Shown one piece after another: positions 231-11,851 of a DNA stretch of 12,071 bases. The stretch's first letter is position 1, and every line of letters begins with the position of its first letter. The position numbers were made by a program, and so were the translations under genes. Source of the DNA: Actinomycetes bacterium (lineage in GTDB: Bacteria > Actinomycetota > Acidimicrobiia > Acidimicrobiales > RAAP-2); assembly GCA_021850345.1 (NCBI GenBank), contig JAJZMN010000193.1:1-12071 (forward strand). Reading direction: 5' to 3'. A model generated the notes under the pieces. That model saw only the letters and a list, made by a program, of their open reading frames with translations. It ran no database searches and was not told where the DNA came from.

Positions 231-2492
231 ATGGGACTGGCGGACCCGGTGAGCGAGTGGTCTGCCAGCTGGACGCGCCCGATCCACGACGCGATCCACG
301 TGGACCGCTCCAAGCTGGCCTTGGTGCCCGCGGCGCGCTGTGCGCTGGGCATCGCCGTCCCGCTGGTCGTCGGCGACCTCTCCGGCCACCTTCTGGTCGG
401 GGTGGGAGGTGCGATCGGCGCGCTGACCACGGGGATGGCGTCGCTACAGGGCACCTATCGCAGCCGGGTGAAGATCATGGCGTTCGCGGCGGCAGCCTTC
501 GCCGTGTCGGCCTTCGTCGGAGCGACCGTCGGCCACCTGGAGGGCCCCGACATCGCGGTCACCGCCGTGTGGGGGATCGCCGCCGGGCTGCTGGTGATGT
601 TCGGAGAGGCACCGGGCGTGGTCGGCCTCCAGGCCGTCGTCGGCCTGGTCGTCTTCTCCCAATTCTCCTTCACCCCCGAGCAGGCCGCGCTCAATGCGCT
701 GTGGGCGCTGTGCGGCGGCGCGCTCCAGATCGTCCTCGTGGCCGTGACCTGGCCCCTCCAGCGCTTCCCGGTAGAGCGTGCTGCGTCGAGCGACGCCTAC
801 CGGCAGCTGGCCGCCCACCTCCGCTCGCTTGCCAGTGACCCGTCGGCCCTCCTCGATCCCGGCGTCCTCGACACGCTGCGGTCCGCACTCGTCGAGACCC
901 AGCCCTGGGGCGACCGGGCCGCCGCCGCCGCCTACCGGGCGCTGGCCGACGAGGCGGAGCGGATCCGCCTCGAGGTGGCCGGCATCGCCCGGGCTCGGGC
1001 CCGGCTCTCCCACGCCTCAACGATCGCGACGCCCACGGGCCGGGCCGGCGCGCTCGACGCTGCCAGCTACCTGGAGCGCGCCATCATCGCCTCAGCCGAC
1101 GTGCTGGCCGGCGTCGCCGCCGCCCTTCACGACGGGCGCAGCGTCGTCGCCGACCCTGAGGACCGCGAGCAATTTCGAGCCGCCATCGAGCACCTCCGCT
1201 CGCTGGCCGAGTCGGGCGACCCTTCGGTGCGCGCCAACCTCACCCATGCCGTCGGAGCCCTGACGGCACTGGCGGGCCAGCTTCGGTCAGTGACCCAGCT
1301 GACGGCGGTGGCCGCCGGCAACCAGCCGGTCGCACAGGGAACCACCGCCTCGGCTACGGGCCACCCTGTGCGACGCCGGTCGCGGCCGTCTCCGCTCGCC
1401 GGCACGAAACTGAGCCGGCTCGAGTCGGTGCGCGCCAACCTCACCCTCACCTCCGAGGTCTTCCGTCACGCCCTCCGGGTCGGTGTCACCCTGGCGGTGG
1501 CCGTCGCCATCTCCCACCTGTTCCCCCTGGGTCATGGCTACTGGCTCCCGATGACCGTCATGATCGTCCTCAAGCCCGACTTCGCCGCCACCTTGAGCCG
1601 AGGGCTGGCTCGCAGCGTCGGCACCCTGCTCGGTGCCGGGCTCGTCACGCTGTTGCTGGCCGCACTGGCGCCGTCGCCGGCCGGCCTGATCGTGCTCACC
1701 GTGGCGCTGTATGCCATCAGCATCGCCGTGCTTCGCGCCAATTACGTCATCTACAGCGTCGGCATCGCGTCGCTCGTCGTCGTCCTGCTCGCCTTCACCG
1801 GTTCCCCGGCACCCTCCCTCGCCGCCGACCGGGCCTTCTACACCCTTCTCGGTGCCGCCCTGGCCTTGGCGGCCTACGCCGCCTGGCCGACCTGGGAGCG
1901 CACCCGCGTCGTCGATCGCCTGGCCGACCTCGTCGAGATCGATGGTCGCTACGGCGCCGCGCTTCTCCAGGCGTGGGCCGACCCGGCCAGTGCCGATCGG
2001 ACGGCACTCCAGCGGCTGCGGCTGACGGCGCGCCTCGCTCGCTCCAACGCCGAAGCATCCGTCGACCGCTGGATGAGCGAGCCGGCCGGTCGCCCAACGA
2101 CGTCGCCGAACGCGCTCGACCCCCAGACGGCGCAAGGCATCCTCGCCGCAGTGCGCCGCTACATCTGGGGCGCGCTCGTCCTGCACGGACAGCTTCCGAG
2201 CACCGGTCCGACCCGACCCGACCTCCACCGTCTCGGCGTCGAGGCCGAAGAAGCCATGGCCGCAGTGGTCGGTATGCTGCGGACCGGGTCTGCCCCGACG
2301 GACTACCCCCCGTTGCGAGCCACCCAGGTCGCGCTCGCCGCCAATCTGATGCGCGCCTCCAACCACGCCGCCGATCCGACGCCGACGGCCGTGGACATGG
2401 TGGTCCTGAGCGAGACCGACCTCATGGTCAACGCGGTCGACACCCTCGCCCACCTCGTCGGTGTCGGTCCCCGATCGCCCGCAGACTCCTGA
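231..2492 (+). CDS. FUSC-family membrane protein (aromatic acid/fusaric acid efflux type)
   Basis: Inner-membrane protein of 753 residues in the FUSC (fusaric acid resistance-like) family, whose members are linked to export of toxic aromatic or other weak acids. What is seen: a first hydrophobic block at about residues 28-180; a cytoplasmic stretch rich in Ala, Arg and Glu at about 185-400; a second block at about 407-552 containing HGYWLPMTVMIVLKPDF, then the family-typical Arg-rich turn and VGTLLGA; and a soluble C-terminal tail of about 200 residues. The two-block arrangement and length are normal for the family. The frame is open from a GTG at 96, but the Arg/Ala-rich residues encoded before 231 do not look like a family N-terminus, so I chose the ATG at 231; no strong ribosome binding site decides it. 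It converges on the decarboxylase operon. A role in exporting that pathway's aromatic acids is possible but unproven. The substrate is unknown. Confidence 0.88.
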   Translation: MGLADPVSEWSASWTRPIHDAIHVDRSKLALVPAARCALGIAVPLVVGDLSGHLLVGVGGAIGALTTGMASLQGTYRSRVKIMAFAAAAFAVSAFVGATVGHLEGPDIAVTAVWGIAAGLLVMFGEAPGVVGLQAVVGLVVFSQFSFTPEQAALNALWALCGGALQIVLVAVTWPLQRFPVERAASSDAYRQLAAHLRSLASDPSALLDPGVLDTLRSALVETQPWGDRAAAAAYRALADEAERIRLEVAGIARARARLSHASTIATPTGRAGALDAASYLERAIIASADVLAGVAAALHDGRSVVADPEDREQFRAAIEHLRSLAESGDPSVRANLTHAVGALTALAGQLRSVTQLTAVAAGNQPVAQGTTASATGHPVRRRSRPSPLAGTKLSRLESVRANLTLTSEVFRHALRVGVTLAVAVAISHLFPLGHGYWLPMTVMIVLKPDFAATLSRGLARSVGTLLGAGLVTLLLAALAPSPAGLIVLTVALYAISIAVLRANYVIYSVGIASLVVVLLAFTGSPAPSLAADRAFYTLLGAALALAAYAAWPTWERTRVVDRLADLVEIDGRYGAALLQAWADPASADRTALQRLRLTARLARSNAEASVDRWMSEPAGRPTTSPNALDPQTAQGILAAVRRYIWGALVLHGQLPSTGPTRPDLHRLGVEAEEAMAAVVGMLRTGSAPTDYPPLRATQVALAANLMRASNHAADPTPTAVDMVVLSETDLMVNAVDTLAHLVGVGPRSPADS
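1224..1446 (+). repeat. 22-nt exact direct repeat inside the FUSC gene
   Basis: The same 22 nt occur at 1224-1245 and 1425-1446, 201 nt apart, which is exactly 67 codons. Both copies encode SVRANLT in frame (about residues 332-338 and 399-405). The second copy sits at the entry to the second membrane block, where FUSC proteins often carry a similar motif. The first copy lies in the cytoplasmic linker. Confidence 0.75.
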
Positions 2493-2756: not shown

Positions 2757-4214
2757 TCACTGCAGCAGGTACGACCAGCGATCGAGGGCAGCGCGGCGCT
2801 GGTTCATCGGCGGCACGTTCACCGGTGGGAACTGGTCCCGCCATTCCCAAGGACGGGTGGCGTCGATGAGCGCGCGCGAGTTGGTGAAGTCCCCGGCGGC
2901 CCGCTGCTCGGGCGTAAGGCGCGGGTCGAGAGGCGTGCTCCACGCCCGGCGGACGAAGTCGATGGAGGTCGCCGGGTCCGAGCGCGTGCACACTGCCCAG
3001 ATGACCTCTTCGAGGTTCGACGGATCGATGTCCTCGTCGACCACCACCACGTACTTGCCGGCGTACGCACCAGTGTGGCACTGGGAGGCGACGTGGAGCA
3101 CCTGGTGGGCGTGGCCGGGGTAGCGCTGGCGGATGGAGACCACCGTGAACATGCGGCTGCCGCCGGCCTCGTGCTGCCAACAGGCCACGACGTCGGGAAC
3201 TCCTGCCTTGGCGATCTCCTCGTACAAGAGGGCGGAACGCAGCGGAGCACGATAACGCCCGAGCTCGTCGGGTGGACGCCCCGGAGGGCATCCCAAGATG
3301 ATGGGGTCGCTGCGGTGGTACACGGCTTCGACGTGGAGTACCGGCTCTTCGCGCTCGCCCGAGGCGTAGTACCCGGTCCACTCGCCGAAGGGTCCCTCCG
3401 GCAGGACTTCTTCGGTGCTGGCATACCCCTCCACCACGATCTCGGCGTTGGCGGGGAAGGGAAGTCCGGTGATCGGCCCCTCGATGGTCGGCACTGGCTC
3501 ACCAAGGATGCCGCCCACCCAGTCGTACTCGGTGAGGCCGTAGGGGATCTCGTTGCTCGCCGCCAGGAAGAGCAGGGGGTGCGAGCCGAACACCATCACC
3601 ACCGGGCATCTCTCAGCGCGCTCGAAGTACTTCTGGCGGTGGATCCGCCCGTGCTTGCCGGGCGAGATGTAGTAGCCCAGCCGTCGTGCGTCGTGGACCA
3701 TGACGCGGTAGGTGCCGACATTGACCCAGCCGTCGTCGGGATCCCGCGTGACGTCGTAGGAACCGGTGCCAAGGTATCGGCCTCCGTCACCGGGGTGCCA
3801 CAGCGGTGCAGGGAAGACCGTGACGTCGACGTCGTCGCCGCGTCGCACGTTCTCCATCACCGGACCGTCCGTGACCCGGGTGGCGGCCAAAGGATCGCTG
3901 CCGAGGATGCGTTCTCGCCACACGTCGGACAGCTGGAGCTTGGTGAGACCCAGCGGCGCGTTGATGGCGAGCGCCATGCGGTCCACCGTGCCCAGGCCAT
4001 TGACGAGCACCCGGTAACCCTTTTGGTAGCCGGGGATGTCGTCGAACAGGACGGCCGGCGCCCCTTCGGTGTGCTGGAGAAGGTCGGCGGCATCGCCGAT
4101 CTCCTGCTCGGCCGAAGCTCCCGTGACGTGGCGCAGCTGGCCCGTCCCGTCGACCCGTTCCAGCCACGACCGCAGGTCGTAGGTCGCAGAGCGCTTCTCT
4201 TCCTTGTCGCCCAT
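2757..4214 (-). CDS. UbiD-family prenylated-FMN decarboxylase (copy 1)
   Basis: A 485-residue cytosolic enzyme of the UbiD family, which reversibly decarboxylates aromatic or alpha,beta-unsaturated acids using prenylated FMN and a metal ion. The residues needed are all present by comparison with fungal Fdc1 (N168, R173, H191, E233, E277, E282): N165 and R170 in VNVGTYR, H188 in SPGKHGR, E229, and E273/E278 in EGPFGEWTGYY. The catalytic Arg-Glu-Glu set and the metal ligands are therefore intact. The length is normal. The frame opens 14 codons earlier, but the ATG at 4214 has an AGGAG site 9 nt upstream. It is the last gene of the minus-strand operon, 94 nt after its paralogue, and may have its own translation control. 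The substrate is unknown; context suggests a carboxylated aromatic. The prenyl-FMN synthase (UbiX) is not in the window and must be supplied from elsewhere. Confidence 0.94.
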   Translation of the reverse strand: MGDKEEKRSATYDLRSWLERVDGTGQLRHVTGASAEQEIGDAADLLQHTEGAPAVLFDDIPGYQKGYRVLVNGLGTVDRMALAINAPLGLTKLQLSDVWRERILGSDPLAATRVTDGPVMENVRRGDDVDVTVFPAPLWHPGDGGRYLGTGSYDVTRDPDDGWVNVGTYRVMVHDARRLGYYISPGKHGRIHRQKYFERAERCPVVMVFGSHPLLFLAASNEIPYGLTEYDWVGGILGEPVPTIEGPITGLPFPANAEIVVEGYASTEEVLPEGPFGEWTGYYASGEREEPVLHVEAVYHRSDPIILGCPPGRPPDELGRYRAPLRSALLYEEIAKAGVPDVVACWQHEAGGSRMFTVVSIRQRYPGHAHQVLHVASQCHTGAYAGKYVVVVDEDIDPSNLEEVIWAVCTRSDPATSIDFVRRAWSTPLDPRLTPEQRAAGDFTNSRALIDATRPWEWRDQFPPVNVPPMNQRRAALDRWSYLLQ

Positions 4215-4223
4215 GTGCGGCGG

Positions 4224-4234
4224 CTCCTCTCCTT
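4224..4234 (-). promoter_or_regulatory. Ribosome binding site fixing the UbiD copy 1 start
   Basis: On the minus strand the sequence AAGGAGAGGAG ends 9 nt before the ATG at 4214. It supports that start over the in-frame upstream codon at 4256. Confidence 0.6.
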
Positions 4235-4281
4235 CGTGTGTCCGTCGTGCCCTCATGGGCGCGACGGTCGGCGGTTCTCCT

Positions 4282-4293
4282 GCGCCGCGGCGC
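4282..4293. repeat. 12-bp perfect palindrome between the two UbiD genes
   Basis: GCGCCGCGGCGC is self-complementary and lies in the 94-nt gap between the UbiD genes, 15 nt after the upstream stop. It could be an mRNA processing or attenuation hairpin that tunes the last gene. In DNA this GC-rich it could also be compositional. Confidence 0.35.
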
Positions 4294-4308
4294 GACGCGT
4301 CCCCCAGC

Positions 4309-5856
4309 TCAGAGGAGCCAGGACCAACGCTCCCTGGTGATGGCCTTCTCCTCGGGATCGGGACCGATGGGGTCGGGGAAGCGTTCTCGCCACTCCCACG
4401 GGCGGGTGGCGTCGATCACCACCCGGGAGTTGAAGCCCTTCTTGCCCGGCTCGATCGCGGGGTCGAGCGGGCCGCTCCACGCCCGGTGGATCATCTCGAA
4501 GTCGCGCTCCGGATCGGCCCGGGTGCAGATGGCCCAGATCACCTCGTTGAGGTCGGCCACGTCCACGTCCTCGTCGACTACTACGACGATCCGTCCGAGG
4601 TACGCCCCGGCGCGGCAGGAGGCGGCGACGTGCCCGGCTTGGACCGCGTGCCCGGGATAGCGCTGGCGGATGGCCACCACGTTGAAGAGACGACAACCGC
4701 CGACGCCGTGGCACCAGGCGGCCGTGACGTCGGGCACGCCGGCCCGGCGCAACTCTCGGCGGAGGTTGGCGCTGCGTAGGTACTGGCGAAAGCGGTGCGC
4801 CTCGAAGGGCGGTTTCTCAGGTGGCACCCCGAGGATGATGGGGTCCCGGCGCCGGTAGACGTGCTGAACCTCGAAGACCGGTACGTCCTGCGCACCGGTG
4901 GCGTAGTAGCCGGTCCACTCGCCGAAAGGACCCTCGAGCCGCAGCTGATCAGGGTGGAGCACACCCTCGAGGGCGATCTCGGCCCGAGCCGGGATCGGGA
5001 GCCCGGTGGCGCGCCCAGGGATGCAGTCGATCGGCCGCCCGCGCATGCCGCCCGCCCACTCGAGCTCGTTCACCCCCGGGGCCATCTCGAGACAGCTGCC
5101 CACGAAGAGGAGCGGGTCCATACCGCACACGACGACCGCCGGAAGCGGCTCGCCGCGCTCGAACGCCTTGTCGCGGTGTATGCGACCGTGCTTGCCCGGC
5201 GAGATGTAGAGCCCGGTGTGGTTGCGGTCGTGCACCATCACCCGGTACGTGCCGACGTTGACCCAGTCCGAGTCGGGATCCCGAGTGATCACGCAGTCGC
5301 CGGTGCCGAGATAGCGGCCACCGTCTTGGGGATGCCACAACGGCACGGGGAACCGAAGGAGGTCCACCTCGTCGCCCGACGCAACCACCTCGGTCACGGG
5401 GGCGGTGTCCGGGCTGTCCTCGACCATCACCACCGGGAGCGGCTCGACGGTGTCCATCTTGTGCTCCCACACGTCCATGAGGTCTCGGACGGAGATGTCC
5501 GCGGGCAGCCCGAGCGTCACCGCCAGGCGGCGCCGTTCGCCCTGGGCGTTGACCAGGATGCGCCAGCCACGACCGAAGCCCTCGAAGTCGTCGAACAGGA
5601 CGGCCGGTGCCCCGTCAGTGTGCTGGAGCATCTCGGTGATCCGCCCCACGTCCCCGTCGAGATCCACGCCCTCGAGCACCCGCAGCTCACCAAGGGCGTC
5701 GACCATCGCCAGCCAGTCCCGCAGGTCCTCGTGCGACGTGCCCTCACGCACCGCCTCGATGTCGACCGGCACCGCCAGCCCGAGGTCGCCGAGCGAGCCG
5801 ACCCGGACGCCGGACAGCCCCAGGTGCTCGGGCACTGCGGCGGGATCGGTGATCAC
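4309..5856 (-). CDS. UbiD-family prenylated-FMN decarboxylase (copy 2)
   Basis: A 515-residue UbiD-family decarboxylase, paralogous to the next gene in the operon; long blocks such as WVNVGTYRVMVHD, ISPGKHGRIHR and EGPFGEWTGYY are identical. The expected prenyl-FMN and metal residues are present: N200, R205, H223, E264, E308 and E313. Start choice: the frame is open to 6060, but the GTG at 5856 overlaps the stop of the preceding aldolase-family gene as GTGA and has GGGAG 6 nt upstream, so translational coupling is likely. That start gives about 35 residues ahead of the DLRDWL motif with which copy 1 begins almost at once; this extra N-terminal segment is unexplained. An alternative GTG sits near residue 36. 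The two copies may act on different acids or form a mixed oligomer; both are inference. Confidence 0.94.
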   Translation of the reverse strand: MITDPAAVPEHLGLSGVRVGSLGDLGLAVPVDIEAVREGTSHEDLRDWLAMVDALGELRVLEGVDLDGDVGRITEMLQHTDGAPAVLFDDFEGFGRGWRILVNAQGERRRLAVTLGLPADISVRDLMDVWEHKMDTVEPLPVVMVEDSPDTAPVTEVVASGDEVDLLRFPVPLWHPQDGGRYLGTGDCVITRDPDSDWVNVGTYRVMVHDRNHTGLYISPGKHGRIHRDKAFERGEPLPAVVVCGMDPLLFVGSCLEMAPGVNELEWAGGMRGRPIDCIPGRATGLPIPARAEIALEGVLHPDQLRLEGPFGEWTGYYATGAQDVPVFEVQHVYRRRDPIILGVPPEKPPFEAHRFRQYLRSANLRRELRRAGVPDVTAAWCHGVGGCRLFNVVAIRQRYPGHAVQAGHVAASCRAGAYLGRIVVVVDEDVDVADLNEVIWAICTRADPERDFEMIHRAWSGPLDPAIEPGKKGFNSRVVIDATRPWEWRERFPDPIGPDPEEKAITRERWSWLL

Positions 5857-6689
5857 GCCCGGCTCCCGTTGTTCCCGTCGGCACCGGGACTTCCGACCGC
5901 CCCGACCCCGCCGGCGGCAGTGGCGGTAGCCGCCGCGGGGCGCGGTGCCTCGAGCCACGCGGTGGAGACCGAACCGGTTGCCACGGCGACCGAGGTTGCA
6001 TACCGCCACACCTTGCGTGCATGGCGTCGGCGGTCGAAGGTGGCGAGGAACCGCTCGCACTCGTAGCGGCGAAGCGGGACGACCGTCCCGAGGGTCATTG
6101 CGCGAGCGAGCGTGTCGGCGTTCTCGACGAAGTGGACCACGTCGGTGAAGAGGGCGGGCACGTCCTCTGCCACCACCACCTCACCGTGGGAGCGCAGGAG
6201 TGCCGCATGCGCCGAGCCCAAGGTGACGGCCAGCTCAGCCCCCTGCTCGTACGTAGAGATGTGCGAAGGGTCGGGATGCACGGGCACTCCCGCCGCCCAC
6301 CTGCTGGCGTGGTTCTTGACCGGCACGATGGCGGCACCCTCGACCATGCTGAAGACCGTCGTGGGGTCGTGGTGGAAGTGCGCAACCGCAGCGACATCGG
6401 GCCGGGCCAAGTACACGCCGGTATGGATCGCGAGCTCGGACGGTGGTCGGCCCTCGCCCTCGATCACGGTGCCGTCGAAACGCACACGCAAGACGGTCTC
6501 TGGGCGGAGCCCAGCTCGGGGCTCGTCGACCGGCTGGACGAGCAACTCGTCCGAGACGCCCGGGACACGGGTGCTCAGATGGCCGCTGTAGTTCAGGATC
6601 GACGCATCGACCAACATGCGCGTGGCGACTGCCAGCTCTCGTCGCAGCTCCTCCAGCACATGACCTCCTCGGAACGGCCGGCGGGTCAT
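5853..6689 (-). CDS. Class II aldolase/adducin-family protein, possible dihydroxyphthalate-type decarboxylase
   Basis: A 278-residue cytosolic metalloenzyme of the class II aldolase family. Its members cleave sugar phosphates (FucA, AraD epimerase) or decarboxylate aromatic dicarboxylates such as 3,4-dihydroxyphthalate. Metal ligands are visible as H104 and H106 (AHFHHD) and H168 (RSHG). E85 (SELAIH) precedes the first His by 19 residues, the same spacing as E73 and H92 in fuculose-phosphate aldolase. Beside a Pht5-like gene and UbiD genes, a decarboxylase role is more likely than sugar aldol cleavage, but this is inference. The C-terminus carries about 30 residues of Ala/Gly-rich low-complexity sequence beyond the core fold. 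Start: ATG at 6689, 20 nt after the upstream gene. An in-frame GTG at 6659 has AGGAGG 4 nt ahead and is a real alternative, 10 codons shorter. The stop overlaps the UbiD start. Confidence 0.85.
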   Translation of the reverse strand: MTRRPFRGGHVLEELRRELAVATRMLVDASILNYSGHLSTRVPGVSDELLVQPVDEPRAGLRPETVLRVRFDGTVIEGEGRPPSELAIHTGVYLARPDVAAVAHFHHDPTTVFSMVEGAAIVPVKNHASRWAAGVPVHPDPSHISTYEQGAELAVTLGSAHAALLRSHGEVVVAEDVPALFTDVVHFVENADTLARAMTLGTVVPLRRYECERFLATFDRRRHARKVWRYATSVAVATGSVSTAWLEAPRPAAATATAAGGVGAVGSPGADGNNGSRA

Positions 6690-6709
6690 CCCCGCCGGGG
6701 TCGGCTCGA

Positions 6710-7702
6710 TCAGACCTTGTAATGGTCCAGGACCTGGGGGGCGAAGAGCTCCTCGGGCTCGAGGCGCCGGGCCGCGACCCCTTGCTCGTGCGCCCATCGG
6801 GTGAACGCCTCGAGCGTGGTCCGGTTGGGCTCGACACCGTAGGGCCAGGGGTCGGGGCTGATGAGCCGGCGCATGTCCGCCACCATCTCGGGGATCCACG
6901 GCAGGGGTACCCGGCTGGCCGTCATCTCCGACAGGCGCGCAACGCTCCGGCGTTTGGCCTCTTCGAACGCCGTGAGGAGGTTGGCCGCCACCCAGGGCGC
7001 CGATTCGAGCACGTCAGCTCGAATGACCGTGATGTGCATGATCGGGAAGACGCCGGTGCGCTCGACGTACTCGCGCTCGATCGGTCGGTAGTCGGGAAAC
7101 AGCCGGACGATGCCTGCCTCGCCCCGCTCGAAGCTCTCGGGTGGATGGGCGGACAGCACGGCGTCGAGATCTCCCGCATGCAGCATGTCGTCGAGGCACC
7201 GGTCCGGCACCGGGGTGAGCGAGATGCCCTCGGGCAGGCTGAGGGTCACCTTCTCGGCCCGCCCAGGAGTGTTGACGCCCGCTTGGAACCACTGCACGTC
7301 CCGCAGATCGATCCCCCACTCGTACTGGAGAAGCGCCCGGGAGTAGACCGACGCCGTCTGCGCCCACTCGGGCACGCCGATGCGCGCACCAGCGAGCTCC
7401 TTCGGGGTCGTCGGTCCGTCGGTCCGCACGTAGATCGACGAGTGTCGGCACACCCGCGACGGGAAAACCGGGATGGCGACGAGGCTGGTGTCACCACCCG
7501 CCCGCAGCGCCACGTACTTGGCAAAGGAAAGCTCGGACACGTGCCACTCGCGGTAACGGAGGAAACGGAAGAAGATCTCCTCCACCGGGAGCCGGAGGAC
7601 GGTGAGGTCGACGCCTTCGACCGGCACCTCCCCCGTCTCGATGTCGAGCACGTGGTCGTAGCCGCTCATGGCCAGCGTCAGCGGGATCTTCGATGCCGTC
7701 AT
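6710..7702 (-). CDS. 4,5-dihydroxyphthalate decarboxylase-like protein (Pht5 family)
   Basis: A 330-residue protein resembling Pseudomonas Pht5, which converts 4,5-dihydroxyphthalate to protocatechuate and has a fold related to periplasmic binding proteins. Family-like segments: VEGVDL (28-33), EEIFFRFLRYREWHVSE (41-57), AIPVFPSRVCRHSSIYV (76-92), PGRAEK (146-151) and GVFPIMHITVIR (217-228). There is no signal peptide or lipobox, which favours a cytosolic enzyme over an ABC-transporter substrate-binding protein. The catalytic residues of this family are not well enough known to me to score. The start ATG at 7702 overlaps the DapA-like stop as ATGA, so the two are translationally coupled. Automated pipelines may call it an ABC substrate-binding protein. 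Its true substrate may be a different aromatic dicarboxylate. Confidence 0.87.
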   Translation of the reverse strand: MTASKIPLTLAMSGYDHVLDIETGEVPVEGVDLTVLRLPVEEIFFRFLRYREWHVSELSFAKYVALRAGGDTSLVAIPVFPSRVCRHSSIYVRTDGPTTPKELAGARIGVPEWAQTASVYSRALLQYEWGIDLRDVQWFQAGVNTPGRAEKVTLSLPEGISLTPVPDRCLDDMLHAGDLDAVLSAHPPESFERGEAGIVRLFPDYRPIEREYVERTGVFPIMHITVIRADVLESAPWVAANLLTAFEEAKRRSVARLSEMTASRVPLPWIPEMVADMRRLISPDPWPYGVEPNRTTLEAFTRWAHEQGVAARRLEPEELFAPQVLDHYKV

Positions 7703-8601
7703 GTCAGCAGTCCAGCGCGAACGAGCACGCCGTCGAGGCGAGACTCGAGCTCCGGCGTGGCGGGGGCCATCGGCAATCGGTGCTCGTTGCTCTTCAGCAC
7801 GCCCATCCGCCGCAGCATGTACTTGACCGGGATGGGGTTGGTGTCGAAGAAGACGGCCTTGTTGAGCTCCCACAGCTCGACGTGGATCTTTCTTGCCTCG
7901 GCCAGGTCGCCAACGTCGACAGCACGCCACAGGGCGGCCACTCGGTCCGGGACGAGGTTGCCGACGGCATTCATGAGTCCGCACGCTCCCACCGCCAGCA
8001 TCGGCAAGCTCAGCTCCTCCAGGCCGACGAAGACCCGGAAGTCCGGCCCGACGCGTTGGAGCACTTCGGTGACCAAGCCGAGGTCGGTCGCGGCGTGCTT
8101 CATCCCCACCAGGTTGTCCGCCCGCCGGGCAATCGCCTCGATGGTCCCTACCTCGAGCGTCACGGCTGCCCGTCCAGGGATGTGGTAGATGAGAACCGGC
8201 ACGTCGACAGCGCCGGCCACCTGGGAGAAGTACTCTTCGAGCCCCCGTTGCGGCGGCCGGGCGTAGTACGGGGTCACCACCAGGACCGCGTCGGCGCCGG
8301 CGTCGACGGCCCGTCGCGACAGCTCGAGGGTGGCGCCCAGCGACTCGGTGCCCGTGGCGGCCACGACCGGGACTCGACCTGCAGCAGCCGTCACCGCGGC
8401 GCGCACCAGCTCCGCCCGCTCGTCGACCGTGAGCATGCTCGGCTCGCCGCTCGTGCCCGTGACCACCACGCCCTGCGAGCCGTTTGCTGCCTGACGGTCA
8501 ACGATCGCCTCGTAGGTGGCCAGGTCGACCGCACCGTCTGTGAAGGGCGTGACCACCGGCGTGTAGGAGCCGACCAGCGCGCCCGGCGCGAGGTGCTGCA
8601 C
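7699..8601 (-). CDS. DapA-family pyruvate lyase / hydratase-aldolase
   Basis: A 300-residue TIM-barrel protein of the dihydrodipicolinate synthase/N-acetylneuraminate lyase family. These enzymes form a Schiff base between a lysine and pyruvate or another 2-oxoacid. Seen: GTSGEPSML (49-57), the usual GTTGE loop with Ser for the second Thr; the catalytic Tyr139 and Arg144 in YHIPGR, where His replaces the usual Asn; and the Schiff-base Lys168 in VGMKHA. Arg144 matches Arg138 of E. coli DapA by spacing. The aromatic context makes lysine biosynthesis unlikely; NahE- and PhdJ-type hydratase-aldolases of aromatic catabolism belong to this family and are a better model. The GTG at 8601 shares one base with the TAG stop of the cupin gene (TAGTG), which fixes the start even though the frame is open further upstream. 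Confidence 0.9.
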   Translation of the reverse strand: MQHLAPGALVGSYTPVVTPFTDGAVDLATYEAIVDRQAANGSQGVVVTGTSGEPSMLTVDERAELVRAAVTAAAGRVPVVAATGTESLGATLELSRRAVDAGADAVLVVTPYYARPPQRGLEEYFSQVAGAVDVPVLIYHIPGRAAVTLEVGTIEAIARRADNLVGMKHAATDLGLVTEVLQRVGPDFRVFVGLEELSLPMLAVGACGLMNAVGNLVPDRVAALWRAVDVGDLAEARKIHVELWELNKAVFFDTNPIPVKYMLRRMGVLKSNEHRLPMAPATPELESRLDGVLVRAGLLT

Positions 8602-9764
8602 TACTCGCCATCCCTGTTCGTCTCGAAACCGCGCTGGGACCCAAGGAGACGCGGCGGGTTCTTCAGGTCCTCCTGCCACATGAGCGAGTCGTTGGAGATG
8701 TGGAACGGGCTGTCCTGGATGGTCAGCTCGTACACCGGCTCGTCGTTGGAGGCGTGATTGTGGATCGACCAGCCGGGTGCCGTGAGCATGAGGTCGCCCG
8801 CACCCCACTCGTAGCGCCGGCCCGCCACCCGGCTCCAGCCGCTACCGGCAAAGAAGTAGTTGATCGCCGCCGACGCGTGCCGGTGCGGGCGGTCGACGAT
8901 GCCCGGCGGCCGGATGGTGATGGTGGCGAAGAAGCTGTTGGTCGTCCCATTGGCCCGCCCGGTCGCCGGGTTGTAGAGGAGGTACAGACGCCGGCCGCGG
9001 TACTTGGGGCCGAGGGCGGTCAGCTTGTCCAGCTCGCGCTTCACCTCGGCCCACGGCCAGTGGATCGGGTGCTGTTCGATCACCTCGGGGTTTATGAGCC
9101 GCTCGTAGGACATGAGCAGCGGTCCACCCTCGCGCATGGCAAAGACGTGGGCGATGGGGTGCTCGCCAATGTCATCGGAGCCCTGGTTCCATCCAGCCGG
9201 CTCCTCGGGCGGGTGCTCATCGACGAAATGCACCCGGATCTTTTCGAGCACTGGGGCGTTCGAGTACACGAGCCGCACGTGGCGTTCGGAGGTGTCGTTC
9301 TCGTGGAAGTACGTGGTGAGCGAGGGCATGCACCAGACGTCGTACTGCTGGAAAGAGATCTTCTCGCCCCCGACGGCAGTGAAGCCAGCTCCCTCGATGC
9401 AAAAACCAACCTGTGACGAGTTGTGCCGAACCGGTGACGTCCGCTCCCCCGGAAGGAGCACCTCGAGGCTCACCCGGATCCCGGGTGCCAGCCCGAGCCC
9501 GGGCTCGTCAGAGAGCGGGTGAACGATCCATGATGCCCGCCGTCCGTCAGCCGGACGCGGGAGCGACGACAGCCGCTCGACCTCCTGGGCGATCTCCGCC
9601 TTTCGGATGATGACCGGTGGCCACGCCCCCTCCTCGACCGCCGGGTAGCTGACGTTCGAGCGGTCGACGAACCGGGCGCGCAGTGGCACCGGGTTGCCGT
9701 CGCCCTCCTGCCCACCGGCGGCGGCCGCATCGTCGGCTACCTGATGCCGCAGCTGATCCGTCAT
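8601..9764 (-). CDS. Bicupin gentisate 1,2-dioxygenase-like protein
   Basis: A 387-residue two-domain cupin resembling gentisate, salicylate and 1-hydroxy-2-naphthoate dioxygenases, which use Fe(II) to open aromatic rings. The N-terminal cupin (about 95-170) has VRHNSSQVGFCIEGAGF and YFHEND: the first His of the HxH pair is Val112, leaving His114 and His154. The C-terminal cupin (about 280-350) has a complete set: His294 and His296 in PHRH and His335 in IHNH. In characterised gentisate dioxygenases the iron site is in the N-terminal cupin, so the layout here is reversed. The ATG at 9764 is chosen as start. The frame is also open to a GTG at 9857 through in-frame tandem repeats that would add a basic tail; that option cannot be excluded. 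It is the second structural gene, 123 nt after the cyclodeaminase-family gene. Ring cleavage is the likely role; the substrate is unknown. Confidence 0.87.
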   Translation of the reverse strand: MTDQLRHQVADDAAAAGGQEGDGNPVPLRARFVDRSNVSYPAVEEGAWPPVIIRKAEIAQEVERLSSLPRPADGRRASWIVHPLSDEPGLGLAPGIRVSLEVLLPGERTSPVRHNSSQVGFCIEGAGFTAVGGEKISFQQYDVWCMPSLTTYFHENDTSERHVRLVYSNAPVLEKIRVHFVDEHPPEEPAGWNQGSDDIGEHPIAHVFAMREGGPLLMSYERLINPEVIEQHPIHWPWAEVKRELDKLTALGPKYRGRRLYLLYNPATGRANGTTNSFFATITIRPPGIVDRPHRHASAAINYFFAGSGWSRVAGRRYEWGAGDLMLTAPGWSIHNHASNDEPVYELTIQDSPFHISNDSLMWQEDLKNPPRLLGSQRGFETNRDGE

Positions 9765-9786
9765 GCTCTCATCGGCCCTTCTCCTT

Positions 9787-9810
9787 GTTCGTTCCTGGGT
9801 TCGTTCCTGG
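9787..9810. repeat. Two perfect 12-nt tandem repeats before the cupin gene
   Basis: GTTCGTTCCTGG occurs twice head to tail at 9787-9798 and 9799-9810, upstream of the cupin start. On the minus strand it reads CCAGGAACGAAC twice. The period is a multiple of three and stays in the cupin frame. Confidence 0.9.
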
Positions 9811-9812
9811 TT

Positions 9813-9857
9813 CTTGCGCACCGTGGCGGTCTTGCGCACCGTGGCGGTCTTGCGCAC
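9813..9857. repeat. 2.5 copies of an 18-nt tandem repeat before the cupin gene
   Basis: The unit CTTGCGCACCGTGGCGGT occurs at 9813-9830 and 9831-9848, followed by a 9-nt partial copy at 9849-9857. Read on the minus strand in the cupin frame, each unit gives six residues, KTATVR. Each unit also contains a potential GTG start. Confidence 0.92.
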
Positions 9858-9887
9858 GCCAACGCCGGGGGTCCCGCTGCTTCACGT

Positions 9888-10892
9888 TCACGGCGTCGGC
9901 TGCACCGGTCGCAACGCGACCGGTGCGCGGCCTCGGCGGGGCACGCTGGCCGACGGCGATCTGCCTTCCAAGCGCTCGAGGACGGCGAGCGCGAGCGCGA
10001 CGTCCTCGATCCCCGAACCCATCCCTTTGAACAGGGTCACGTCGCCGGGTCGTCGACCTCCGAGACCCTCGCTCACCACCTGACCCAGGGTGCGCACGGA
10101 AGCCCACGATGCGTCGTCGTCGCCGTAGTGCTCGCGCAGCTCGCTCGACAAGGCGCGGACCTGGGGAAGGCTGTCGGTGACCACGGCGGCACATCGGCCG
10201 AGGATCGCCGACTCGAGCTCTCGGCGCCGAAGGTCGATGGCGCCGACGGCGTTGACGTGCATTCCAGGCTCGACCATCGCCTCCGTCAGGACCGGCTCGG
10301 TCGCCCGGGTGACGAGGGTGACCACGTCGGCACCGCCGACGGCTTCCTCAGCGGACCCCGTCGGATGGCAGGCGACGCCGAGCTCGTTCTCCACCCGCCG
10401 TGCGAGATCTTCGCGGTGCGCGGGCGTGGGGCTGTAGGCGCGCACCTCTCGCAGCGCCCGCACCTGCGCGACGGCCGCCACCTGGGGCAGCGCCTGCCTT
10501 CCGGTGCCGACCACGGCCATCACGGAGGCGTCAGCGCGAGCCAGCAGGTCGGTGGCGAGGGCGGCAGTTCCCGAGGTGCGCAGCTGTCCGAGCGCGAACG
10601 CCTCGATGACCGCGGTCACCGCTCCATTGCGCACGTCGAAGAGGACGAGGACCGGGTCGGCACCGCCCGGGGTATGGGTCCACACTTTGGTCCCGGCGTA
10701 GCCGGCAGCCGGAAATGCAGCCCCAAGAGCGTGCAGGGTGGCGTGGTTGCCATAGCCGAGGAGGGTCTTGTCCAGTGCGGTGGCGGTGCCGGCGCCTTCC
10801 TGGGCGAAGCCGGCGCGCAGGGCCTCGAGGGCGACGCCGGGATCGAGGACCGAGACGACGTCATGCTCCGAGATCCACTGCGTCACGTCCAT
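9888..10892 (-). CDS. Ornithine cyclodeaminase/mu-crystallin-family NAD(P)-dependent enzyme
   Basis: A 334-residue cytosolic enzyme. The family includes ornithine and lysine cyclodeaminases, ketimine and piperideine-carboxylate reductases, alanine dehydrogenase and opine-type enzymes. Seen: Lys69 in GTKVW and Arg105 in QLRTSGTAAL, typical substrate-binding positions; the Rossmann motif VVGTGRQALPQ (127-137); Asp220 in GAIDLRRREL, matching the catalytic Asp region; and the family C-terminal signature FKGMGSGIEDVALA (288-301). The length is normal, with about 20 extra Pro/Arg-rich residues at the end. The ATG at 10892 has GGGAGGA 6 nt upstream. It is the first gene behind the operon promoter. 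In an aromatic operon it may reduce an imine or oxidise an amino or hydroxy acid intermediate; the substrate is not predictable from sequence. Confidence 0.92.
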   Translation of the reverse strand: MDVTQWISEHDVVSVLDPGVALEALRAGFAQEGAGTATALDKTLLGYGNHATLHALGAAFPAAGYAGTKVWTHTPGGADPVLVLFDVRNGAVTAVIEAFALGQLRTSGTAALATDLLARADASVMAVVGTGRQALPQVAAVAQVRALREVRAYSPTPAHREDLARRVENELGVACHPTGSAEEAVGGADVVTLVTRATEPVLTEAMVEPGMHVNAVGAIDLRRRELESAILGRCAAVVTDSLPQVRALSSELREHYGDDDASWASVRTLGQVVSEGLGGRRPGDVTLFKGMGSGIEDVALALAVLERLEGRSPSASVPRRGRAPVALRPVQPTP

Positions 10893-11056: not shown

Positions 11057-11851
11057 TCAGGGAACCAGCGCCTCGACCGAAGCCCGGACGTCGAGAAGGT
11101 GGGCCACCAGGTCGTCCCATGGCTCCTTTGGTGCGCGCACCAGCGGCATGGAGACGCTGATGGACACCACTGGCCGCCCGTCCCGCTGACGCACCGCGGC
11201 GCTGACCGACCCCACTCCCGGCTCGCTCTCCCCCAAGTTGCGGGCGTAACCGGTGCGCCGCACTTCTTGGAGCTCGCTCATGAGCGCAGCGCGCGAGGTG
11301 ATGGACTGGTCGGTCAGGGCCGGGAGCTTCGGCGACGGGTAGAGGCCGCGCAGGAAGTCGTCGCTCTCGCAAGCCAGCCAGGCCTTCCCGATCGACGTGC
11401 AGTGCGCCCACATCCGAGTGCCCACGCGCGAGGCGACACGTAGAGCGTTCGGGCTCTCGGCGCAGGCGATGAAGAGCATCTCATTGCCCTGGAGAATGGC
11501 TGCGTGGGCCGTCTCCCCCGTCTCGTCCCGCAACCGCTCGAGGAACAGGAGAACGAGATTGCGCACCTCCATTCCCCGGACGGCCAACAGCCCGACCCGC
11601 AGCAGCGCCGGACCGGCCCGGTACACCTTGCTCTCGGGGTCCTGCACCACGAAGTCGTGGTGGACGAGCATGGCGAGCAGTCGGTGGGCCGTGGAGACCG
11701 CCGTCCCCAGGCTCGACGCCGCCTCCGAGACGCGGATCTGCTTTCGCTCGGTGACCATGAGCAGGAGGCGAAGTACGTTGTCGACGGACTCGATGGGGTA
11801 GCCCGGCGATCGTGGCGCCACCGCACCGTCCGCCCGTCCACTGCTCGCCAT
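11057..11851 (-). CDS. IclR-family transcriptional regulator
   Basis: A 264-residue DNA-binding regulator. The N-terminal winged helix-turn-helix covers about residues 18-82 (ESVDNVLRLL; IRVSEAASSLGTAVSTAHRLL; KVYRAGPALLRVG). The C-terminal IclR effector domain covers about 95-260 and contains CTSIGKAWLA (151-160) and the late NLGESEPGVGSVSAAV segment typical of the family. IclR proteins often control aromatic-acid catabolic operons and bind a small pathway acid in the C-terminal domain. It is on the same strand as, and directly upstream of, the operon; the promoter and palindrome between them suggest local control. The frame is open to a GTG at 11950. I chose the ATG at 11851 because the residues before it look non-conserved, but no strong ribosome binding site decides between them. 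Whether it represses or activates is unknown; the operator position favours repression. Confidence 0.92.
   Translation of the reverse strand: MASSGRADGAVAPRSPGYPIESVDNVLRLLLMVTERKQIRVSEAASSLGTAVSTAHRLLAMLVHHDFVVQDPESKVYRAGPALLRVGLLAVRGMEVRNLVLLFLERLRDETGETAHAAILQGNEMLFIACAESPNALRVASRVGTRMWAHCTSIGKAWLACESDDFLRGLYPSPKLPALTDQSITSRAALMSELQEVRRTGYARNLGESEPGVGSVSAAVRQRDGRPVVSISVSMPLVRAPKEPWDDLVAHLLDVRASVEALVP

What the first reader, a model, noticed from the sequence alone, without database searches (positions are those of the whole stretch)
2757..10892. Seven-gene operon combining three unrelated decarboxylase-associated families with a cupin dioxygenase and a DapA-like lyase
Seen: two UbiD homologues, a Pht5-like protein and a class II aldolase-family protein lie together with a bicupin and a DapA-family enzyme, with overlapping starts and stops. 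Known: Pht5 and some class II aldolase-family enzymes decarboxylate dihydroxyphthalates, and UbiD enzymes decarboxylate many aromatic acids. Inference: the operon degrades an aromatic or heteroaromatic polycarboxylate, removing several carboxylates before or after ring opening. I do not recognise this gene set as a described pathway.
Basis: partly seen in the sequence, partly recalled or inferred. Interest (0 to 1): 0.75.

Follow-up and report, generated by a model that had tools for sequence, protein, structure and literature searches.

The report
Aromatic-acid degradation operon with four decarboxylases
An actinobacterium carries a compact, patchily distributed set of genes that most likely strips carboxyl groups off an aromatic acid and then opens its ring, a gene combination for which no described pathway was found.

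Summary
Seven genes on the minus strand (10892 to 2757), with a probable IclR regulator upstream, encode an OCD/mu-crystallin-type enzyme, a gentisate/salicylate-dioxygenase-type bicupin, a DapA-type lyase, a Pht5-like protein, a class II aldolase-family protein (AldII) and two UbiD homologues. Three junctions overlap. It is not a chance neighbourhood: in the genus the same 5 of 13 genomes carry it, and one ANGP1 locus holds all six families. Across 19 cupin-bearing loci the common core is OCD + bicupin + DapA (OCD 17, DapA 16 of 19); Pht5 (11), AldII (7) and UbiD (7) look like add-on modules. Relatives add Rieske, P450 or molybdenum hydroxylases, aromatic-acid transport and UbiX. This supports catabolism of a hydroxylated aromatic or heteroaromatic acid: decarboxylases feeding cupin ring cleavage and a pyruvate-releasing lyase, as in PhdI/PhdJ. 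The polycarboxylate substrate is inferred; it is helped by UbiDa being 57% identical to a UbiD in a phthalate-type cluster of Aromatoleum aromaticum EbN1, and by the ANGP1 locus carrying homologues of that cluster's other UbiDs and CoA transferase. The OCD step is unexplained. No published pathway with this gene set turned up in my searches.

The parts
11057..11821 (-). IclR-family regulator, probable regulator of the operon
   Evidence: PF01614/PF09339; an IclR homologue is next to the OCD gene also in L008, L009 and L011 and lies near it, divergent, in L020. Regulation itself not shown.
9888..10892 (-). OCD/mu-crystallin-family enzyme; most likely reduces an imino or keto intermediate (inferred)
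   Evidence: PF02423 4e-45; best solved chains thiomorpholine-carboxylate dehydrogenase and pyrroline-2-carboxylate reductase; in 17 of 19 cupin loci.
8601..9764 (-). bicupin of the gentisate/salicylate 1,2-dioxygenase fold, proposed ring-cleaving dioxygenase; HxH...H motif in the C-terminal cupin
7699..8601 (-). DapA-family lyase; proposed hydratase-aldolase releasing pyruvate
   Evidence: PF00701; best NCBIfam TIGR02313 HpaI-NOT-DapA, 295.8 bits, cut-off 396.7; K168, Y139, R144 invariant or with at most one exception in 10 sequences; two other DapA-like genes in the genome.
6710..7702 (-). Pht5-like protein (4,5-dihydroxyphthalate decarboxylase family)
   Evidence: PDB 9jp7, 7.7e-73; no obvious signal peptide by eye; in 11 of 19 cupin loci.
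5853..6659 (-). class II aldolase-family protein; possible metal-dependent decarboxylase
   Evidence: PF00596; best PDB 2z7b Mlr6791, 8e-10; E, HxH and H of the metal-ligand pattern (pattern recalled) kept in 5 of 5 sequences.
4309..5856 (-). UbiDb, prenyl-FMN-dependent decarboxylase homologue
   Evidence: PF01977/PF20695/PF20696; best PDB 7pda, 1e-94; VGTYR and EGPFGE motifs kept (catalytic role recalled).
2757..4214 (-). UbiDa, prenyl-FMN-dependent decarboxylase homologue, 54% identical to UbiDb
   Evidence: PF01977; best PDB 7pda, 1e-112; 57% identical to a UbiD on A. aromaticum EbN1 plasmid 2.

Best explanation
A catabolic operon for a hydroxylated (or first to be hydroxylated) aromatic or heteroaromatic acid carrying more than one carboxylate. 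UbiDa/UbiDb (prenyl-FMN), the class II aldolase-type protein (metal) and the Pht5-like protein each remove a particular ring carboxylate, leaving a salicylate- or gentisate-type acid. The Fe(II) bicupin cleaves the ring between the carbons bearing OH and COOH. The DapA-type lyase forms a Schiff base with the 2-oxo acid product and releases pyruvate plus an aldehyde acid. The OCD-type enzyme reduces an imino or keto intermediate (least certain). Shown: gene order, families, fold, motif conservation, joint presence. Inferred: every reaction, their order and the substrate.
For: Bicupin stands with salicylate/gentisate dioxygenases far above other cupins, with a conserved HxH...H. Both UbiDs keep the VGTYR and EGPFGE motifs. 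Pht5 matches a solved 4,5-dihydroxyphthalate decarboxylase. The core lies beside Rieske hydroxylases (G061 L012; Cupriavidus L035 by homology; Paraburkholderia L033 by annotation, with aromatic acid/H+ symporter and VanB-type reductase), P450s and FAA hydrolases, and near a Mo hydroxylase and UbiX in G007. UbiDa is 57% identical to a UbiD in an EbN1 stretch with UbiX/UbiD pairs and CoA transferases, and ANGP1 locus L020 holds a 66-67% homologue of that stretch's other UbiDs plus a 29% CoA-transferase homologue. Ring cleavage then hydratase-aldolase is the known order for PhdI/PhdJ (table passage of PMC8347714).
Against: No hydroxylase or UbiX in the window; UbiX not found in the 71.65%-complete genome. 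AldII misses the PhtC cut-off and the bicupin misses the GDO cut-off (79.7 vs 442.1 bits). UbiD and AldII are each absent from 12 of 19 cupin loci and Pht5 from 8 (some loci are short), so core and decarboxylases may serve different steps or substrates. OCD has no clear role on a nitrogen-free substrate, and its position varies. In L019 Pht5 lies beside an ABC-transporter gene, so a binding-protein role is not excluded there.
Confidence: 0.6

Rival explanations
1. Nitrogen-heteroaromatic acid catabolism (pyridine, pyrrole, quinoline or phenazine carboxylates): UbiDs act like phenazine-1-carboxylate decarboxylase, a Mo hydroxylase hydroxylates the ring, and the OCD enzyme reduces a cyclic imine after ring opening.
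For: Best PDB match of both UbiDs is 7pda (its identity as PhdA is recalled; PhdA described in PMC13040415 passages); OCD's best solved relatives are imine reductases by name; xanthine-dehydrogenase-type Mo hydroxylase near the cluster in G007 and by homology in G009 and G375; best AldII structure is Mlr6791, recalled as a hydroxymethylpyridine-dicarboxylate decarboxylase.
Against: No Mo hydroxylase in the window and only homologues of at most 36% identity in the recovered part of G000; other loci have Rieske or P450 genes with the same core.
Confidence: 0.22
2. Two separate functions share one operon: the core (OCD-cupin-DapA) degrades one aromatic acid, while the decarboxylase block handles another compound.
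For: The cupin occurs without UbiD in 12 of 19 and without AldII in 12 of 19 loci.
Against: Overlapping genes join DapA-Pht5 and AldII-UbiDb in the window; all six families recur in ANGP1 NP_7; joint presence in the genus.
Confidence: 0.12
3. Sugar-acid or other non-aromatic catabolism, with AldII as a sugar aldolase, DapA as a keto-acid aldolase and Pht5 as a binding protein.
For: Sources name AldII relatives ribulose-5-phosphate epimerase or fuculose aldolase and some Pht5 relatives 'ABC transporter substrate-binding protein'.
Against: UbiDs, GDO-type bicupin and neighbouring hydroxylases; all 24 NCBIfam matches of AldII, most of them sugar-aldolase models, are below their cut-offs (best 71.6 vs 251 bits); most named close Pht5 relatives are called 4,5-dihydroxyphthalate decarboxylase.
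Confidence: 0.06

Closest known systems
PhdI/PhdJ steps of phenanthrene/pyrene degradation (1-hydroxy-2-naphthoate dioxygenase, trans-2'-carboxybenzalpyruvate hydratase-aldolase)
   Same: Ring-cleaving dioxygenase followed by a hydratase-aldolase (names from PMC8347714 table passage; cupin and DapA membership of PhdI/PhdJ recalled).
   Different: No UbiD, Pht5 or OCD in that pair as recalled; sequences not compared here.
Aerobic o-phthalate pathways (Pht5 4,5- and PhtC 3,4-dihydroxyphthalate decarboxylases)
   Same: Same broad families as the Pht5-like and AldII proteins; a PhtC equivalog above cut-off lies near the island in G007 (L032).
   Different: No phthalate dioxygenase or dihydrodiol dehydrogenase in the window; Pht5 copies overlapping Gfo/Idh/MocA annotations in Sphingobium plasmids are 41.6% identical to ours.
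UbiX/UbiD/CoA-transferase cluster on A. aromaticum EbN1 plasmid 2
   Same: Holds a UbiD 57% identical to UbiDa and an IclR-family regulator.
   Different: No cupin, DapA, OCD or Pht5 annotated in the 25 kb seen.
phdABC phenazine-1-carboxylate decarboxylase operon of Mycolicibacterium fortuitum
   Same: PhdA (recalled as 7pda) is the best PDB match of both UbiDs.
   Different: phdABC is decarboxylase + flavin prenyltransferase + PhdC (PMC13040415 passages); no prenyltransferase family among the window's proteins; PhdC not searched for.
Gentisate / salicylate 1,2-dioxygenases
   Different: 15-21% identity; below the NCBIfam gentisate cut-off; motif in the C-terminal cupin, which phmmer pairs with the N-terminal cupin of GDO.

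Membership tests
Gentisate/salicylate 1,2-dioxygenase structural family | bicupin fold of GDO/SDO | tested here: met
Gentisate/salicylate 1,2-dioxygenase structural family | three-His metal site | tested here: met
   H294, H296, H335 invariant in 30 sequences; aligned columns of 15 sequences; metal binding itself not shown
Gentisate 1,2-dioxygenase (TIGR02272) | score above curated cut-off | tested here: not met
   79.7 vs 442.1 bits
UbiD decarboxylases | UbiD N, core and C domains and the R / E..E motifs | tested here: met
   (role of the motif recalled)
UbiD decarboxylases | flavin prenyltransferase UbiX in the same genome | tested here: inconclusive
   none in G000, 71.65% complete; present near the island in G007 (224.1 bits, cut-off 108.9) and by homology in G009
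4,5-dihydroxyphthalate decarboxylase (Pht5) | full-length homology to an enzyme named so | tested here: met
   9jp7, 7.7e-73 over 326 residues
4,5-dihydroxyphthalate decarboxylase (Pht5) | phthalate dioxygenase and dihydrodiol dehydrogenase alongside | tested here: not met
   no such family among the nine window proteins scanned
3,4-dihydroxyphthalate decarboxylase PhtC (NF053537) | score above curated cut-off | tested here: not met
   59.4 vs 200 bits
DapA-type Schiff-base lyases | DHDPS domain with the lysine and tyrosine positions | tested here: met
   PF00701; K168, Y139 (roles recalled)
HpaI-NOT-DapA (TIGR02313) | score above curated cut-off | tested here: not met
   295.8 vs 396.7 bits
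PhdI/PhdJ pathway | activity on 1-hydroxy-2-naphthoate and its ring-cleavage product | not testable with these tools
   needs enzyme assays
Ornithine cyclodeaminase | deaminating cyclisation activity | not testable with these tools
   only family membership PF02423 shown; all 13 NCBIfam matches below their cut-offs

The most novel reading that the evidence does not exclude
A dedicated aerobic pathway for benzene (or heteroaromatic) tri- and tetracarboxylates, such as those formed when black carbon, coal or lignin is oxidised: UbiDa, UbiDb, the class II aldolase-type protein and the Pht5-like protein remove up to four carboxylates position by position, and a domain-swapped GDO-like bicupin with a DapA-type lyase then opens and splits the ring, with an OCD-type enzyme in a new role.
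Probability: 0.13. Interest if true: 0.8.

Novelty: new variant of a known kind. Interest (0 to 1): 0.52.

Why it matters
Aromatic-acid catabolic operons are a known kind, but a patchily distributed core (OCD-bicupin-DapA) combined with three unrelated decarboxylase families is not one that my searches found described. If confirmed it would define a new ring-cleavage route, give functions to widespread proteins annotated as sugar aldolase, ABC binding protein or ornithine cyclodeaminase, and show how polycarboxylated aromatics may be consumed by bacteria known mostly from metagenomes.

Tried and rejected
Chance neighbourhood: rejected. Lysine biosynthesis for DapA: unlikely; two other DapA-like genes above the family cut-off in the genome. 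AldII as PhtC: below cut-off. Literature for the gene set: searches (all six terms: 0 papers; at least 3 of 4 terms: 4 papers; at least 4 of 6 terms: 6 papers), seen as listings with abstract starts; none is about this set by title and abstract start (of them I read only passages of PMC13040137). PMC7591250 (passages) told only that phdA starts phenazine-1-carboxylate degradation. The Rhodococcus JS3073 lead ended at a reference entry on 4-nitroanisole. A search for Mlr6791 gave one unrelated paper, so its function is recalled. A search on benzene polycarboxylate biodegradation gave 6 papers, none on such a pathway by title. In the VIA list no 1-hydroxy-2-naphthoate dioxygenase chain appears, which tells nothing about kinship. 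L036/L037 (96-99% alike over the shared genes) and L033/L034 (same genus) are counted apart there though hardly independent.
Full report
WHAT IS THERE. The window is G000:C139:45106-57176 of a 3.0 Mb, 177-contig, 71.65%-complete genome with GC 67-74%; its right end lies 47 bases from the contig end (contig length). On the minus strand, in order of transcription: IclR regulator (11821-11057), OCD/mu-crystallin enzyme (10892-9888), bicupin (9764-8601), DapA-type lyase (8601-7699), Pht5-like protein (7702-6710), class II aldolase-family protein AldII (6659-5853), UbiDb (5856-4309), UbiDa (4214-2757). Starts were chosen by a codon-usage score; for all but OCD of the seven, upstream starts exist. 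Junction overlaps are 1, 4 and 4 bp; gaps are 123, 50 and 94 bp. A FUSC-family gene on the plus strand converges on the operon. That the genes form one transcript is inferred from spacing.

DOES IT TRAVEL TOGETHER. Congeners G006-G009 keep the order cupin-DapA-Pht5-AldII-UbiDb-UbiDa, at 71-88% protein identity, as far as their contigs reach (G006 on two contigs, with the break inside DapA). OCD (65%) and IclR (70-73%) sit upstream of the cupin in G006, but in G007 and G008 at the other end of the cluster, beyond UbiDa, a transporter and a luciferase-like gene; in G009 no OCD was seen on the stretches read. Of 13 genomes of the genus, 5 have the cupin (E <= 1e-60), Pht5 (1e-60) and a UbiD (1e-100), and they are the same 5; for G009 the UbiD is UbiDb, UbiDa being cut by the contig end. 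The cupin is rare outside: 6 of 100 relatives including the own genome, 3 of 395 of the class including own (E <= 1e-50), 1 of 396 of the phylum, the own one (E <= 1e-40). A scan of genome contigs gave 11 loci from 72 pattern matches; plasmid records gave 9 at E <= 1e-15.

THE CORE AND THE MODULES. I read 19 loci chosen because they hold the cupin: the 8 whole-genome loci, 6 of the 11 scan loci (the other 5 are the same contigs) and 5 of the 9 plasmid records. Within the DNA held, OCD is in 17, DapA in 16, Pht5 in 11, AldII in 7 and UbiD in 7 (tblastn E <= 1e-15 over at least 100 residues). Some loci are short, so absences are upper bounds, and pairs of close strains are counted apart. ANGP1 isolate NP_7 (L020) has all six families plus an IclR gene. 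Indirect support: of the 27 clusters with a contig of 8 kb or more among the 38 best cupin matches, 12 share the exact longest-contig length with a listed AldII relative and 13 with a listed Pht5 relative; equal length is taken as the same contig, and only the top 120 of each list were compared.

NEIGHBOURS IN RELATIVES. G061: Rieske alpha, a gene that I read as its small subunit, a CMD-like protein, OCD, cupin, DapA. Paraburkholderia largidicola: ring-hydroxylating dioxygenase alpha, aromatic acid/H+ symporter, VanB-type reductase, cupin, DapA (named hpaI), CMD-like protein, OCD, porin, MFS, Pht5 (named ABC binding protein) (annotation; homologies). Cupriavidus necator N-1 pBB1: FAA-hydrolase homologue, OCD, cupin, then homologues of the two G061 oxygenase genes. 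Amycolatopsis and Actinomycetospora: luciferase-like monooxygenase, FAA hydrolase, P450 beside OCD, DapA and cupin, with an MFS transporter and a reductase in Amycolatopsis; two Rhodococcus plasmids carry homologues of most of these. G007: ABC-type transporter genes, EutA-like protein, a smaller cupin, UbiX, xanthine-dehydrogenase-type Mo hydroxylase, CMD protein and a PhtC equivalog above its cut-off (286.1 vs 200 bits) (some families were scanned on the G009 copy instead). G009 has homologues of these and G375 of the Mo hydroxylase.

LINKS TO PHTHALATE CHEMISTRY. UbiDa is 57% identical to WP_011255029 on EbN1 plasmid 2, in a stretch with two UbiX/UbiD pairs, two CoA transferases, ABC and TRAP transporter genes and an IclR regulator. 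[quoted passage not shown] That this EbN1 stretch is such a cluster is my inference. L020 holds a UbiD 66-67% identical to the two other EbN1 UbiDs and a protein 29% identical to a CoA transferase there. Pht5 copies overlapping Gfo/Idh/MocA annotations in Sphingobium plasmids are 41.6% identical to ours.

MECHANISM. Inferred: (1) uptake, and hydroxylation by an oxygenase not in the window; (2) removal of ring carboxylates by UbiDa/b, AldII and Pht5; (3) ring cleavage between C-OH and C-COOH by the bicupin; (4) Schiff-base retro-aldol release of pyruvate by the DapA-type lyase, as PhdJ follows PhdI (table passage of PMC8347714); (5) reduction of an imino or keto intermediate by OCD; (6) control by IclR. 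None of these reactions is shown.

VERDICT. The work here adds that the common part is OCD-bicupin-DapA and that the decarboxylases are modules, so 'several carboxylates' is plausible but unproven. Classed as a new variant of a known kind.

Noticed in passing
window 231-2492 (+): FUSC-family membrane protein (fusaric-acid-resistance-like), convergent with the operon; no homologue among the called genes of the relatives' stretches.
   Followed up: partly
L050:9791-10819 (G000:C23), L051:10161-11156, L052:132-1127: A second Pht5-like paralogue (53-59% to the window's) in G000, G008 and G009 at a different place, with a further hit in G007:C78; near the contig end in G000.
   Followed up: partly
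L010, L031, L011, L032: Adjacent island in G007/G009: ABC transporter, EutA-like protein, small cupin, UbiX, Mo hydroxylase, CMD protein and a PhtC equivalog. The role of an EutA-like reactivase there is unexplained.
   Followed up: partly
L054:11941-13455: A. aromaticum EbN1 plasmid 2 UbiD (WP_011255029) that differs from the two UbiDs paired with UbiX there and is 57% identical to UbiDa; annotated only as UbiD family decarboxylase.
   Followed up: partly
window 8601-9764: HxH...H motif in the C-terminal cupin, with cross-matching of domains to GDO: a possible swapped domain order in this bicupin family.
   Followed up: partly
G000, several contigs: Xanthine-dehydrogenase-type Mo hydroxylase large-subunit matches at about a dozen places (23 matches) in a 3 Mb genome.
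   Followed up: no
L036, L037: Rhodococcus plasmid clusters with cupin, DapA, OCD, FAA-hydrolase, P450 and reductase homologues, nearly alike in two strains.
   Followed up: partly
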